A stretch of DNA of 64,000 bases from Eublepharis macularius (taxonomy: Eukaryota; Chordata; Lepidosauria; Squamata; Eublepharidae), in the NCBI RefSeq assembly GCF_028583425.1, contig NC_072801.1, positions 61,953,766 to 62,017,765 on the forward strand, given 5' to 3'. Of this stretch, positions 33,901-39,900 are shown in pieces. A model generated the notes under the pieces. It searched no databases. It was not told the origin of the DNA and worked only from the letters and a program-made list of their open reading frames with translations. Each line of letters opens with the position of its first letter. Within the stretch, counting starts at the first letter, position 1. The translations under genes were made by a program, and so were the position numbers.

Positions 33901-36900
33901 GCTGGCGGCAGATTTCCAGTATCTCAGGCAGAGGGGTTTTTCGCCACAGCTGCCATCTTCTAACTGGATATGCCAGGAATTAAACCTGGAACTAGCAGTA
34001 TGCCACGCTTGTACTCAATGAGGAGATTTTCTTTATTTAATACATTTCTGTGCCACCTTTCTCCTTTGGAATGAGCTCAAAACAATTAATTGTAATCAGA
34101 GTGATTACAACAACAGAGTGAACCTGCTGTAGCAGAGGCCTCCTGCCGAAAAAGACCTAATTAACACAGGCGTGTCTAAATGTGTAGTGGTTCGGCCAGC
34201 AAAAAAGGCTGAACAAGGAAACACCAAAGGGGGGGGGGGGAAATGCATAGAACTGAGCTGTAGCTGGAGATTGGTCGAATATGTCAAATGTGTACACAAT
34301 TAGGAAAAAATAAAGGAGGGGAAAATCCATGATAAAGAGGGAACAAAACAGTGACAGGCAGTAGAGGCTTTCTTTCTTTAGAGGCTTTCTTTCTGTACAG
34401 ATCTATCCAATGTATCTCCTATGCCACGTAAACTATGGCTAGAAACTTTCAGTTGTTAAAACTGGCAGATTAATCCACTAATTAAAATCCCTATAGCCGG
34501 CTTAACTGCTGATTTTGAGAACAAACTTCCACACAGTTGCTAATTGAAAGCAGACGAAAATTGAAGCATATATAACCTGTCATTAATCAGTCTGAGCCAA
34601 ACAGTTTATTTGAGTTCATGTGTTGTGGTCTGTATATGTTCAGTCCAGATGAATGACAATGTATAATGGATGTGATGTAATCAACAATGGATATGATGTA
34701 ATCAATTTATTTATCACACATTGTTATTGAATACTTTCGTTTATTATTTATATTGAATTGAGATAAGAGTGGCTTTAATTGCATACTTAGAGAGCCTGTG
34801 TTTTTCTTCCTGTATTTTGCTTGCTCTCTCTTTAAGAGCCTCTGTTCTAGTTAGTGAGTTTGAGAACAAGCCAAGCATGCCAGATCCCCCACCACAGCAG
34901 GAGATACTCTGCCCCCAGCCTTTGCCCCGCCCCTGGTCCCCTGTTCACCTGGCTGGCAAGGAGATGAAGCACCTTGAAAGGCCAGAGGACAGCCTGAAGC
35001 ATCTGTGCAATGTATGCGCATGCTCACCCGTCATACTGGAAAATGATGTCATTTCTGGCACAACACAGAAGCGACAGGTTGCAACGGGGCCAACTTTCTA
35101 AAAATCAGCCCCAAACTTAGTTTGGGGGGCCAATTTTTAGAGACTGCCCCCCAATACAACCTATCCTTTCTGCATTGTGTTGGAAATGATGTCCTTTTCC
35201 AGCACAATGGGTGGGCACAGGAGAGTTTGTGCATATGGGGTACCCATTGCCCCCCCACACACACACATCTGCCACCTCCTTTCCCATGGTTTGACCCCCA
35301 AGGGAACCTGGCAGCCCTGGAACAAGCAAAGGCTCAGCACTCACGAAGGACACACTGCTGGACGAGTCTGCACAGACTGGCCAGCTCCCTTCCCCCGCCC
35401 CACAATAGTTTTGATGACAAAGAAGTAACTTAAACTGGATTTTCTTTCCAGTTTGTTAACCAAAGCTCACCATTGTTTTTCCTGTTGAAACATCCGTATG
35501 TTGCTATCTAACAATAATTCCAGATGGGTAGCCAAAGATTGAAGTCCTATAGCACTCTAAAGATTGAAGTCCCATAGCACTCTAAAGACCAACAAGATTT
35601 TCAGGGTGTAAGCTTTTGACAGTCAAAGCTCCCTTTGTCAGATACTTTGTCAAGTATCTGATGAAGGAAGCTTTGACTCTTGAAAGCTTGTACCCTGAAA
35701 ATCTTGTTGGTCTTTAAGGTGCTTCTAGTCTCAAATCTTGGCATTTAATCATATGGAACCAAAAATGATATTGTGCTGTTGAGATCATTGTTCATACGTT
35801 TTAAAAACTTGACTGTTCTCCAATACTCATGAATCTTGAATAGGATTCCCAATGCTATCTAGGCAAATGTTGGTAGATTTGGGGGGGCAGTGCCTGGGAT
35901 GGATAGAGTTTGGAGAGGATGCAATGCCACTTCTGGGTGACGCTGTAGAAATTTCCCATAATCTTCATGGTAATGACTGTAGAGATTAGGGAAAATGCCT
36001 AGAAAATTGCTATGAAGGCGTTTTTTTCTCCTGCTCCTCAGTTTCTCGAGAGTAGGAAACTGAGGGTGAGAAATTCCCCATCAGACTCAAACAACGGGGG
36101 ATCCTAGTCTTTACCCTTTTTATTTTAATGTCATTTTTGGGGTTCCATCATCCTACTGCAATGGAAATATAAAAGCCACTAAAGATGGCCTCTTCTTCAA
36201 ACAACAAGTGGTAGCATCTGCTTGTTACACTCACGCAAAGGAAACTGTCCCCCTCCATCAAGATTCTCAAAACACTCCTTCACTAGTTATGAATAAGTAG
36301 ACAGGTCTAAATCCACTAAAAGCCCCCCCCCCCAATCAAATATGAAAAGATCTTTAATCGGCCGCCTGCTTGCACCTTAATTCCCATTCATCTGCCTCTG
36401 CCTGCCTTCTCTGTCCGTCTGCAGGAAGCTGGATGCCTTCATTTATGATGCAGCCGTCCTAAACTACATGGCTCGCAAGGAAGAGGGATGTAAACTTGTC
36501 ACCATAGGAAGTGGGAAAGTCTTTGCCACCACTGGCTACGGCATTGCGTTGCAGAAGGGATCCAAGTGGAAACGGCCCATTGACTTGGCCCTGCTCCAGT
36601 TTCTGAGTGACGGTAAAGCCTATCCACATGCCCTGTTCTGGGGGGAGTAGCGGGAAGGTGAGCTGGAAGCCAGGATTCCTGGGTCCTGTGCATGAGGAAT
36701 GGGGCTATGAGGAATGGGGGGTGGGGGGTGGGAGGGGAATGATGTATATTCTCTCCAAAATCCGGCGCACGTGGTACCAGTTTCTTTAGTAGACGTGCCT
36801 CTCTGCTCACAACAGATAAACGTTAACAAGAAAAAACACAGAGAACACTGGACCAGCAGGGGTCTGAGCAGGGGTGGCGCAAGGGTTTTCAGCACTCGCG

Positions 36901-39900
36901 GCTGGCCGCCCGGGCACCTCCCCCCCCACGTGTGCACCAGCCTGCGTGATGACGTCATGTGTGACGTCATCACGGGTGCGGGCGCGCCGCCGCCAGCCTG
37001 ATTGCTGCGGCAGACGGCTGTGACGGTGCGCGGGTGGCCTCTGAGCTCTCCCACTCGGTTGCCGGCGCTGCCGCAGATGCCTGACCGCAGCGACTGCGCC
37101 CAGCCAGGGGCATGTGCTGGCAGCGGCGGCGGGAGGGATAGGAGGCTGCAGCTCTGTGGCGCGCGCTCCCGCTCCCCGCGCCTCCTCCGGCGTTCCCTCC
37201 GGCACCCCGCGCCTGAGGCCACCGCCTACCTGGCCTCAATGGGTGCGCCAGCCCTGGGTCTGAGATCCTGGAAAGCAATCCCGAACCATTTACTCCCATC
37301 TACGTACCACGAATAAGCAACAATTCCAAATAAGGCACATCTGAGAGCGGAAATACACATTGTGGATTACTTGGGGTTGCTCAAGTGCAGGATTTTGTGT
37401 GTGGTCCTCAGTTCATGTGCAAGCTGTTCTTGCTTAGCGCATGTGCGTGCTGTTTTCATAAGAGCTTCCTTTGTGTGATTGCATCTGCGAGTGAGTCCGG
37501 AGGGTAGAGCACCAATTCAGCTTTGTTTTCGCTGCGAGAACAAGTACTGTAGGTTCCTTTGACTTGCCAATTTGCGTTTCTTTAAGTTGTGAGAAACGGT
37601 CAAGATCTGCATTTCAATGATTGGAGGTGGGAGGTGGAGGAAACTGGGATACTTTTAGCAGTTGAGGAGGAACTGATATTGAATGCGTGAGTGTGTTCAC
37701 GTGGAGCAAACTGAAGTGTGACTGTGCGAGTGAGTGCATGGAAAGTTGGAGGGGGGACATGTGAAATGAGGTTCACTTGAGCATCCCTAGGTATTTAGTA
37801 ACATGTATTTCTACCCTAACAGCCAGCTTCTTATACTCAGACCCACTCCCAGTCATTTTTTTTACCTCTCCAAACTCTAGGCCCAGAAACCCAGCCAAGT
37901 GCTTTTGACTGTCTGCTTTGATTGGTTCAGAGGAGCCTCCCTTGATTAAAACCAAGCTTTAGACAAAATGGAACATTCCTTTCTGTTTGCCAGAAAGTGG
38001 GTTATGATCCACAAGGTGACCATCAAGATTTTGAATTTTACTTAACAGGAATTAGTGTCCCTTTAACACACCATAACAGCCTTGTTTGTGTTTAAAATTG
38101 AACTAGTTAAATGTTAGCGTTACATGCTCCCCACTTCCCAAGCAGCAAGTAGTCCAGAGTTGGCACTGTATGGTTTAGTTTCCTTTGGAGGTAAGAAAAT
38201 GAGAGGGGTATTGTGTCTTTGTAATACCCATTTAACTTTACAAATATACACACAGAGTATAGCAGAAGCAAGAGGCACTCTTGTAGCGGGCAGAAAATCT
38301 GCTAAGCCAAGTTGCCACAGATCCCAACCGCCTCTCTCCACGTTACTTCTTTTACAAGTTCTCCACAAGTTCTCCTCAAAGCCAACCTGTCTTCTGCACA
38401 GACACACATCAGATTGGGGATTGGCTTCTATCAGGGCTTTTTTTCTGGGAAAAGAGGTGGTGGAACTCAGTGGGTTGCCCTTGGAGAAAATGGTCACATG
38501 GCTGGTGGCCCCGCCCCCTGATCTCCAGACAGAGGGGAGTTGAGATGCAGCATTGCGGAGGGCAATCTAAACTCCCCTCTGTCTGGAGATCAGGGGGCGG
38601 GGCCACCGGCCATGTGACCATTTTCAAGAGGTTCCAGAATTCCGTTCCACCTGAAAAAAAGCCCTGGCTTCTATTAAAAAACGAGAATATAAATGGACTC
38701 GGAAAGCTGTTGCCGAGGGAGGAAGAGCTCCTGCCTTTCTCCCAAGCTTTTTTCCCCATTCAAGAACAGTGCGATGTGGGAAAGTTTTCCCATTTCTGCT
38801 GGCACATGCCCATAATACTTCCATGTGGAGCAGCAGAAATGGAGAAAAGAGCCCCTGAACCTTTGGGTGTTTCCCCTTCAGCCTCCTCCTCCCCACCTTC
38901 TCCTCTCTGTGTTTCAGTTCAAAACTGCCAAATATCTTTTTGCCATCTCTGTTCTTCCCCAAACTCTCATCGATGCCACATTTCCAAGGAAACAGATTCA
39001 TTGTCATTAAGGATTATTAAAAACATTTTGTCAGGTCCCTAATCACTCATCAGTTTGTCAGTTAAAATCAGCAATAAGCAAGTTCATGCTAATCCAGATA
39101 GCCACATTCATAACAAAAACTGTGTTTTTCCCCTTTGCAGGTATCACATGTTCATGTGTAAAGGGATTCAAAGCCACATTTAAAAGTTTGCTCCAGGGCC
39201 CCGGAAGTATGACTTGTCCCACCTTATCCCATCACTAGGGCTTGAAAATGAGCCTTGCGTTCTTCTTCCCCAGCACTCCAAACCTCTGCCTCCCTTCCAG
39301 CCACAGCGACCACCTGCACATTGATAGATGTGCGTATGTAGCCAGAACATGACATTCGATTCTGAATGAATTAATCCAGAATAAAAATGTGTGTGCACCC
39401 TAGCAAGGATGATTGGGAGCAAAGCCTCCTGTACCTCCTGGGAGAGAAGCAAGCTCCAGCAGGCTAGACTTGGAGCAATGGGAATAGGAGACAGACATCT
39501 AGCTTTCTATTTCTAGCTTCAGGGATAATGAACAGACACGGTTTCTGGCGTGTTTGATCTGAGCAGAGGAACCTGGATTCTGTCTCTGCCGCGGCTAATG
39601 GGCTCAGTCTGAGACTCTAATTGCTCTTAGCCAACAGTCTCGCTTCTCTTTATAGTCCTGACTGACTGGGGATGCCCAGGGGGAACGGGACACAGGGCTT
39701 TCCTTCCCTCCGCAGGGCATGCCAGTGGATTGGAGAGATGGGCAGCCCATGTCCAGGACTCTTTCCCCACATTTGTCAGTTGAATGTAAAAGTGCATTGA
39801 AGGAAAAGTGCTCCTTAAAAAAAATGGTTGTCTCCAGCATTCAGTATTGTATTCACAAGATTCAGAAGTGAAGCCTTCCAAACTCCAAGGCATTCTTTAC

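What the first reader, a model, noticed from the sequence alone, without database searches (positions are those of the whole stretch)
36869..37256. A CpG-dense hAT element brings an inverted pair of perfect CRE sites into GRIN2D intron 10
Seen: perfect 8-bp duplication GGTCTGAG, inverted CAGGG...CCCTG ends, CpG-rich interior, and two TGACGTCA octamers in 12-bp inverted arms (36946-36957, 36962-36973) with a 4-base spacer. Known: TGACGTCA is the CREB/ATF consensus and its activity depends on CpG methylation. Inference: an insertion like this, in a neuronal gene, could act as an activity-responsive enhancer or alternative promoter, and would be miscalled as an ordinary CpG island.
Basis: partly seen in the sequence, partly recalled or inferred. 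Interest (0 to 1): 0.72.

Follow-up and report, generated by a model that had tools for sequence, protein, structure and literature searches.

The report
Lizard transposon with paired CREB-like sites
The stretch is one old copy of a short, dead-end jumping gene whose family carries a built-in pair of CREB-type sites; nothing here shows that this copy regulates the nerve-receptor gene it sits in, but the same kind of paired site recurs thousands of times in this genome, in several jumping-gene families where I looked.

Summary
Window 36869-37256 is a 388-bp non-autonomous hAT element (perfect 8-bp duplication GGTCTGAG, Tip100-like ends) in a GRIN2D intron, 256 bp after a splice donor. Forty relatives were scored in this genome. 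A CpG-tolerant pattern for its palindrome has 1116 sites, reversed control 0; all 40 fetched are copies. The CRE pair is ancestral: the consensus holds a perfect 28-nt palindrome. The enhancer reading is not supported: CRE CpGs decay no slower than other CpGs, about half of all are lost, mostly to TG/CA, and at most 168 of 1116 copies keep both octamers. The larger finding lies outside: 10,812 CpG-tolerant CRE dyads genome-wide, reversed control 1. Fifty intact pairs on one contig fall into MITE families with at least three kinds of ends; in the 16 elements with clear ends the dyad lies 66-111 bp from one end, with shared outer bases but spacers of 2-11 nt. I think the dyad served the transposons (bZIP-driven promoter or accessibility) and was not recruited by GRIN2D. 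No functional data, parent element or other lizard genome was available.

The parts
36861..36868 (.). left target-site duplication GGTCTGAG
36869..37256 (+). non-autonomous hAT element, 388 bp; family of at least 40 scored copies, and 1116 sites of its palindrome in the genome
36869..36880 (+). left terminal inverted repeat CAGGGGTGGCGC (family consensus CAGGGGCGGCGC)
36946..36973 (.). CRE dyad, 28 nt; perfect palindrome in the family consensus, here with the centre CGCG changed to TGTG
36950..36957 (.). TGACGTCA, first CRE octamer, 81 bp from the left end
36962..36969 (.). TGACGTCA, second CRE octamer
37245..37256 (-). right terminal inverted repeat, CAGGGCTGGCGC read on the minus strand, 11 of 12 matching the left
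37257..37264 (.). right target-site duplication GGTCTGAG
36429..36612 (+). GRIN2D exon upstream of the insertion (start approximate; donor GTAAAG at 36613)
42681..42880 (+). GRIN2D exon downstream (both limits approximate)

Best explanation
Shown: this is a decaying copy of a high-copy hAT MITE family that inserted, with an 8-bp target duplication, into a GRIN2D intron; the CRE pair came with it, because the family consensus has a perfect 28-nt CRE palindrome about 90 bp from its left end. Shown for 16 elements with clear ends: a dyad of the same kind, with similar outer bases but different spacers, sits 66-111 bp from one end of MITEs, including some with other ends. Inferred: the dyad is a functional module of the transposons themselves. 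Most likely it is two independent bZIP (CREB/ATF/CREM) sites that formed, or were kept from, the 5' promoter/enhancer of the parent transposase gene, or that keep the element accessible in germ cells. Each octamer is a complete bZIP dimer site, so variable spacing is tolerated, as seen. After insertion the copies are methylated and the sites decay; in GRIN2D this copy most likely does nothing.
For: Family and insertion: 40 scored copies, 33 of 40 (window copy included) with 8-bp duplications differing by at most one base; in a sample not chosen by likeness to the window copy 35 of 40 end to end, 34 of those 35 with duplications of at most one mismatch. Dyad in consensus. Dyad number: 1116 sites of the family form, control 0; 10,812 of the general form, control 1. 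Position 66-111 bp in 16 of 16 elements with clear ends, of length 379-774 bp. Bases beyond the searched octamer conserved: arms starting TCA 26 of 30, 26 of 30 and 13 of 32 in three clusters. Variable spacers 2-11 nt. Decay by deamination: 1103 of 1260 lost CpGs read TG, CA or TA. The dyad is not clearly better conserved than elsewhere among copies: 95 of 359 windows of 28 columns change as little or less.
Against: No autonomous partner was found. Six transposase-bearing loci read around six of 150 scored PF05699 hits hold no TGAYRTCA octamer; their element ends were not found, so a dyad outside the fetched stretch is not excluded, and some may be ZBED-type genes rather than transposons. The one locus with a dyad upstream of a transposase (L127+L141) has no matching right end, and two related transposase copies have another left flank. 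bZIP binding and germ-line expression were not tested. Six other hAT-like elements in the window, with ends CAGGGCTTTTTTTC, carry no dyad, so not every hAT MITE has it. The 50 dyad sites studied were chosen by the dyad and lie in the first 137 Mb of one contig; 4 of the 50 lack the shared outer bases. Parts of the left ends are also similar between families, so shared descent explains part of the pattern.
Confidence: 0.5

Rival explanations
1. The dyad is a transposition signal: a subterminal palindrome near one end recognised by the transposase (BED fingers) or a host cofactor, and its likeness to a CRE is incidental.
For: One-sided subterminal position in the 16 elements with clear ends. In Hermes, a hAT, BED domains bind the left end and not the right, and STR1-STR2 of the left end form a quasi-palindrome (abstract and passages of PMC10368747). 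Outer bases TCACGCAG go beyond a CRE core.
Against: Spacers vary from 2 to 11 nt, and the families have different ends. Hermes repeats occur in both ends and are concentrated at the tips (five in the first 55 bp), whereas this dyad lies 66-111 bp in. Hermes prefers nTnnnnAn targets; family A duplications lean to nnTAnAnn.
Confidence: 0.25
2. One reading: this insertion is an activity-dependent enhancer or alternative promoter of GRIN2D.
For: Two intact CRE octamers in a CpG-rich stretch 256 bp after an exon; at most 168 of 1116 palindrome sites keep both. The copy keeps 41 of 67 consensus CpGs, rank 7 of 36.
Against: That preservation is within the family's spread; no sign of constraint at the dyad; one copy of a highly repeated element; no functional data.
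Confidence: 0.05
3. The dyad spread between MITE families by common descent, recombination and hitch-hiking alone and has no function; hairpin or Z-DNA-prone sequence merely favours such palindromes.
For: Left ends between terminus and dyad are similar above shuffles between A and D (0 of 200 shuffles as good; 2 of 200 for a second A member), between A and one B member (6 and 0 of 200), and between that B member and two C members (4 and 2 of 200), so part of the sharing is descent (these are single-base shuffles, which CG-rich runs can beat). CG-alternating runs flank the dyad.
Against: A against C gives 51, 32, 18 and 156 of 200 shuffles as good, and the other B member is like its B relative but like none of A, C or D, yet dyad and position are shared and the outer bases largely so.
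Confidence: 0.2

Closest known systems
hAT superfamily, Tip group (Tip100) non-autonomous elements
   Same: 8-bp duplications, short imperfect TIRs; consensus end CAGGGGCGGCGC shares its first nine bases with Tip100's CAGGGGCGGAG (TIR from a passage of PMC12511174).
   Different: No transposase linked to this family here; vertebrate, CpG-dense, carries a CRE dyad.
Hermes left-end subterminal repeats (hAT)
   Same: Subterminal, partly palindromic motif with BED binding at one end only (abstract and passages of PMC10368747).
   Different: In Hermes the repeats occur in both ends and near the tips; different motif and different target preference.
MITEs carrying host transcription-factor sites (for example MER85/PGBD3 with AP-1)
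   Same: Short non-autonomous DNA transposons linked to a bZIP-type factor. I saw only the title and the opening of the abstract of PMC3459987 (listing), on tethering of CSB-PGBD3 to AP-1; the link of MER85 copies to AP-1 sites is recalled.
   Different: piggyBac, not hAT; different site; here an inverted pair in several families.
Squamate hAT-Tip100 elements proposed as venom-gene enhancers in rattlesnakes
   Same: Squamate hAT element with regulatory sites (recalled, not read; searches did not list that paper).
   Different: Here there is no functional evidence.

Membership tests
hAT non-autonomous element (MITE) | 8-bp target-site duplication | tested here: met
   Perfect in the window copy; at most one mismatch in 33 of 40 (window copy included) and in 34 of 35 end-to-end copies of the less biased sample
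hAT non-autonomous element (MITE) | short terminal inverted repeats | tested here: met
   11 of 12 positions in the window copy
hAT non-autonomous element (MITE) | short, dispersed, high copy, no transposase | tested here: met
   copies of about 380-413 bp on many contigs, 1116 palindrome sites; six open frames overlapping the element match no Pfam family at E 0.01
hAT Tip group | transposase phylogeny | tested here: inconclusive
   No partner transposase identified; no tree built
hAT Tip group | TIR like Tip100 | tested here: met
   first nine bases of the consensus identical; ends alone do not prove group membership
hAT Ac group | target preference nTnnnnAn | tested here: not met
   52 distinct perfect duplications: T3 63%, A4 52%, A6 52%; T2 29%, A7 35%
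CREB/ATF-responsive enhancer | consensus site TGACGTCA | tested here: met
   two octamers
CREB/ATF-responsive enhancer | constraint on the sites | tested here: not met
   within the family in one genome only; not tested between species
CREB/ATF-responsive enhancer | binding, open chromatin, reporter activity | not testable with these tools
   no functional data
CpG island | length, GC and CpG observed/expected | tested here: met
   388 bp, 0.73, 0.83
CpG island | protection from germline methylation decay | tested here: not met
   26 of 67 alignable consensus CpGs lost in the window copy; about half lost in the samples

The most novel reading that the evidence does not exclude
Several hAT MITE lineages with different ends have kept or acquired the same CREB/ATF/CREM dyad at the same place as a host-factor module (germ-line CREM expression or accessibility) that helps mobilisation, and so have sown more than ten thousand potential cAMP-response dyads through a lizard genome, now being erased by methylation.
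Probability: 0.25. Interest if true: 0.75.

Novelty: new variant of a known kind. Interest (0 to 1): 0.45.

Why it matters
For GRIN2D, little: it is a warning that a CpG-rich, CRE-bearing intronic stretch can be plain transposon. For transposon biology, a bZIP-type dyad conserved in position across MITE families with unlike ends would be a direct handle on why some MITEs amplify, and a large natural reservoir of CRE pairs whose decay and occasional use can be followed copy by copy.

Tried and rejected
Rejected: chance pairing of octamers (one composition-matched control, 2 against 1029; reversed CpG-free controls 194 and 120); post-insertion selection on the dyad within family A; a structured RNA of a known family (Rfam, 0 matches over 36800-37320); a coding remnant (six open frames, no Pfam match at E 0.01).

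Led nowhere: search for the autonomous partner. PF05699 gave 4145 candidates, 150 scored; six loci read around such hits (L135-L140) have no CRE-like octamer, and the search for paired ends gave nothing convincing. C1:107692278, chosen because a dyad lies 3.4 kb from a PF05699 hit, shows a family-B left end abutting a decayed transposase copy but no right end, and L139/L140 have another left flank: inconclusive. I could not test whether the CpG-rich interior was captured from a host gene, nor count single TGACGTCA in the genome (neither search was ever answered), nor look in other squamates (none was held by the tools I used). Species: the assembly (2.24 Gb, 72 contigs) fits my recollection of the leopard gecko reference, but that paper is not held and searches did not confirm it.

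Papers: PMC3942097, PMC12511174, PMC10368747, PMC13148402 and PMC12087220 were seen as passages only; all others as search listings. I saw no paper on this dyad in the listings; the library lacks most subscription papers and listings were capped, so this is weak evidence of novelty.

Counts: searches list only the first places of the genome; those of 23, 24 and 85 are 50 places each, all on contig C1. My notebook says 51 and 'spacer 2-12' in places; the listings hold 50, and the spacers seen are 2-11. I fetched 40 of the 50 places (three more were already held as L011, L023 and L046, seven were left) and had all 50. Three of the 40 (L066-L068) look like segmental duplicates, and L059 duplicates L058. 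The 'A prime' label is family A read on the other strand. The 16 elements are the 17 with perfect duplications less L059. The boundary finder gave 9 hits in about 300 random window places (places near the element were skipped but counted), two of them at hAT-like elements.
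Full report
What is there. Window 36869-37256 is flanked by GGTCTGAG on both sides and begins and ends with imperfect inverted repeats. It lies in GRIN2D: the exon ending at 36612 and the next exon near 42680 match GluN2D better than any other GluN2 in the PDB sequences (254.8 versus 223.4 bits for GluN2C). The element starts 256 bp after the splice donor.

The family. A search of the window's own genome scored 40 copies, of 3158 first-look candidates, at 80-100% identity, the window copy included. Aligned with flanks, 33 of 40 have 8-bp duplications with at most one mismatch, against about 1 of 40 in shuffled pairings. 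The consensus of these 40 is 406 bp with 75 CpG and holds GTGATGACGTCACG|CGTGACGTCATCAC, a perfect 28-nt palindrome with both CRE octamers.

A sample not chosen by likeness to the window copy. The pattern TGATGAYRTCAYRYRTGAYRTCATCA, which allows CpG decay, has 1116 sites and none in the reversed control. I fetched 40 of the 50 listed; all 40 are family copies, 35 end to end; of these 35, 27 have perfect and 7 one-mismatch duplications. They are all on one contig and were chosen by the palindrome. Their consensus differs from the first at several places, so subfamilies exist, but holds the same 28-nt palindrome. Duplications lean to nnTAnAnn (52 distinct), unlike the nTnnnnAn of Hermes (passage).

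Is the dyad kept for the host? In the 39 relatives the CRE CpGs are intact in 33 of 76 cases and other CpGs in 1403 of 2699. In the 35 copies the figures are 7 and 16 of 35 against 1212 of 2452 for all CpGs. Both octamers survive intact at no more than 168 of 1116 sites (an upper bound, since the second pattern allows any spacer of four), and at 4 of the 50 sites listed. Non-CpG dyad positions change at 2.3% against 4.0% elsewhere, but 95 of 359 windows do as well. Lost CpGs read TG, CA or TA in 1103 of 1260 cases, while non-CpG divergence from the sample's own consensus is about 5-6% (median 0.052, mean 0.063). Established knowledge: such decay marks methylated cytosine in the germ line. The window copy has kept 41 of 67 CpGs and ranks 7 of 36: well kept, not exceptional. 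With neutral rates near one per billion years (recalled), a divergence of 4-6% suggests some tens of millions of years.

Beyond the coordinates. Intact CRE pairs within 12 bp occur 1029 times; a pair of another CpG palindrome of the same composition occurs twice, although the tool's reversed, CpG-free controls give 194 and 120. I examined all 50 places listed. They fall into three main clusters (15, 15, 11), a pair, and seven singletons; for I moved five singletons into the C cluster by their ends or spacer sequence, a judgement of mine. Seventeen of 50 have perfect duplications and inverted ends, against 9 of about 300 random window places. Ends are of at least three kinds: CAGGGGCGGC, CAGGGCCGGATC and TAGGGTTGCCAG. 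In the 16 non-duplicate elements the dyad lies 66-111 bp from one end although lengths run from 379 to 774 bp. Outside the octamers, which the search fixed, the bases TCACGCAG recur in the A and B/D clusters and less strongly in C; four other sites lack them. Spacers vary from 2 to 11 nt. Left-end sequence between terminus and dyad is similar above shuffles between A and D, between A and one B member, and between that B member and two C members (2-4 of 200 shuffles as good), but not between A and C (18 to 156 of 200) nor between the other B member and A, C or D. So descent accounts for part of the sharing. Counting decayed dyads, TGATGAYRTCA-N0-14-TGAYRTCATCA has 10,812 sites with 1 in the reversed control; I did not fetch a sample of these, so that most lie in MITEs is inferred from the 40 and 50 sites above.

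How it most likely works. Shown: the pair came in with an element that makes 8-bp duplications, and decays with it. Inferred: in the living transposons the dyad did a job. Each TGACGTCA is itself a full bZIP dimer site, so two octamers with free spacing fit two CREB/ATF/CREM dimers better than one rigid binder; the one-sided subterminal place fits a promoter of the parent transposase or an accessibility element. A transposase or cofactor site is the main rival, by analogy with the one-sided BED binding of Hermes. I could not find the parent: the six transposase loci I read carry no such octamer in the stretch fetched, and the one candidate with a dyad upstream of a transposase lacks a matching right end.

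Verdict. The GRIN2D enhancer idea is unsupported here and, on the decay pattern, unlikely. The dyad module across MITE families is the part that merits follow-up.

Noticed in passing
window 470-636, 7159-7413, 15836-16095, 32827-33011, 33451-33627, 38432-38666: Six copies of another hAT-like short element with ends CAGGGCTTTTTTTC; five perfect 8-bp duplications and one with a single mismatch. None holds a CRE dyad.
   Followed up: partly
L066, L067, L068 (C1:17.72-17.85 Mb): Three copies with the same duplication GGTGGTGG and the same dyad state about 62 kb apart: probably a segmental duplication, not separate insertions.
   Followed up: no
L055 and L060: Long palindromic repeats with TGACGTCA pairs at their centre but without the TCACGCAG outer bases and without clear hAT ends: perhaps a separate origin of a CRE pair.
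   Followed up: no
L135, L136 (C1:20.95 Mb, C2:72.73 Mb): Open frames of 920 and 768 aa with a hAT dimerisation domain and CpG-rich coding sequence, perhaps ZBED-type domesticated genes.
   Followed up: no
L127 with L141 (C1:107692213-107696020): Family-B left end with dyad directly abutting a decayed hAT transposase; either a remnant of an autonomous element or a rearrangement.
   Followed up: partly
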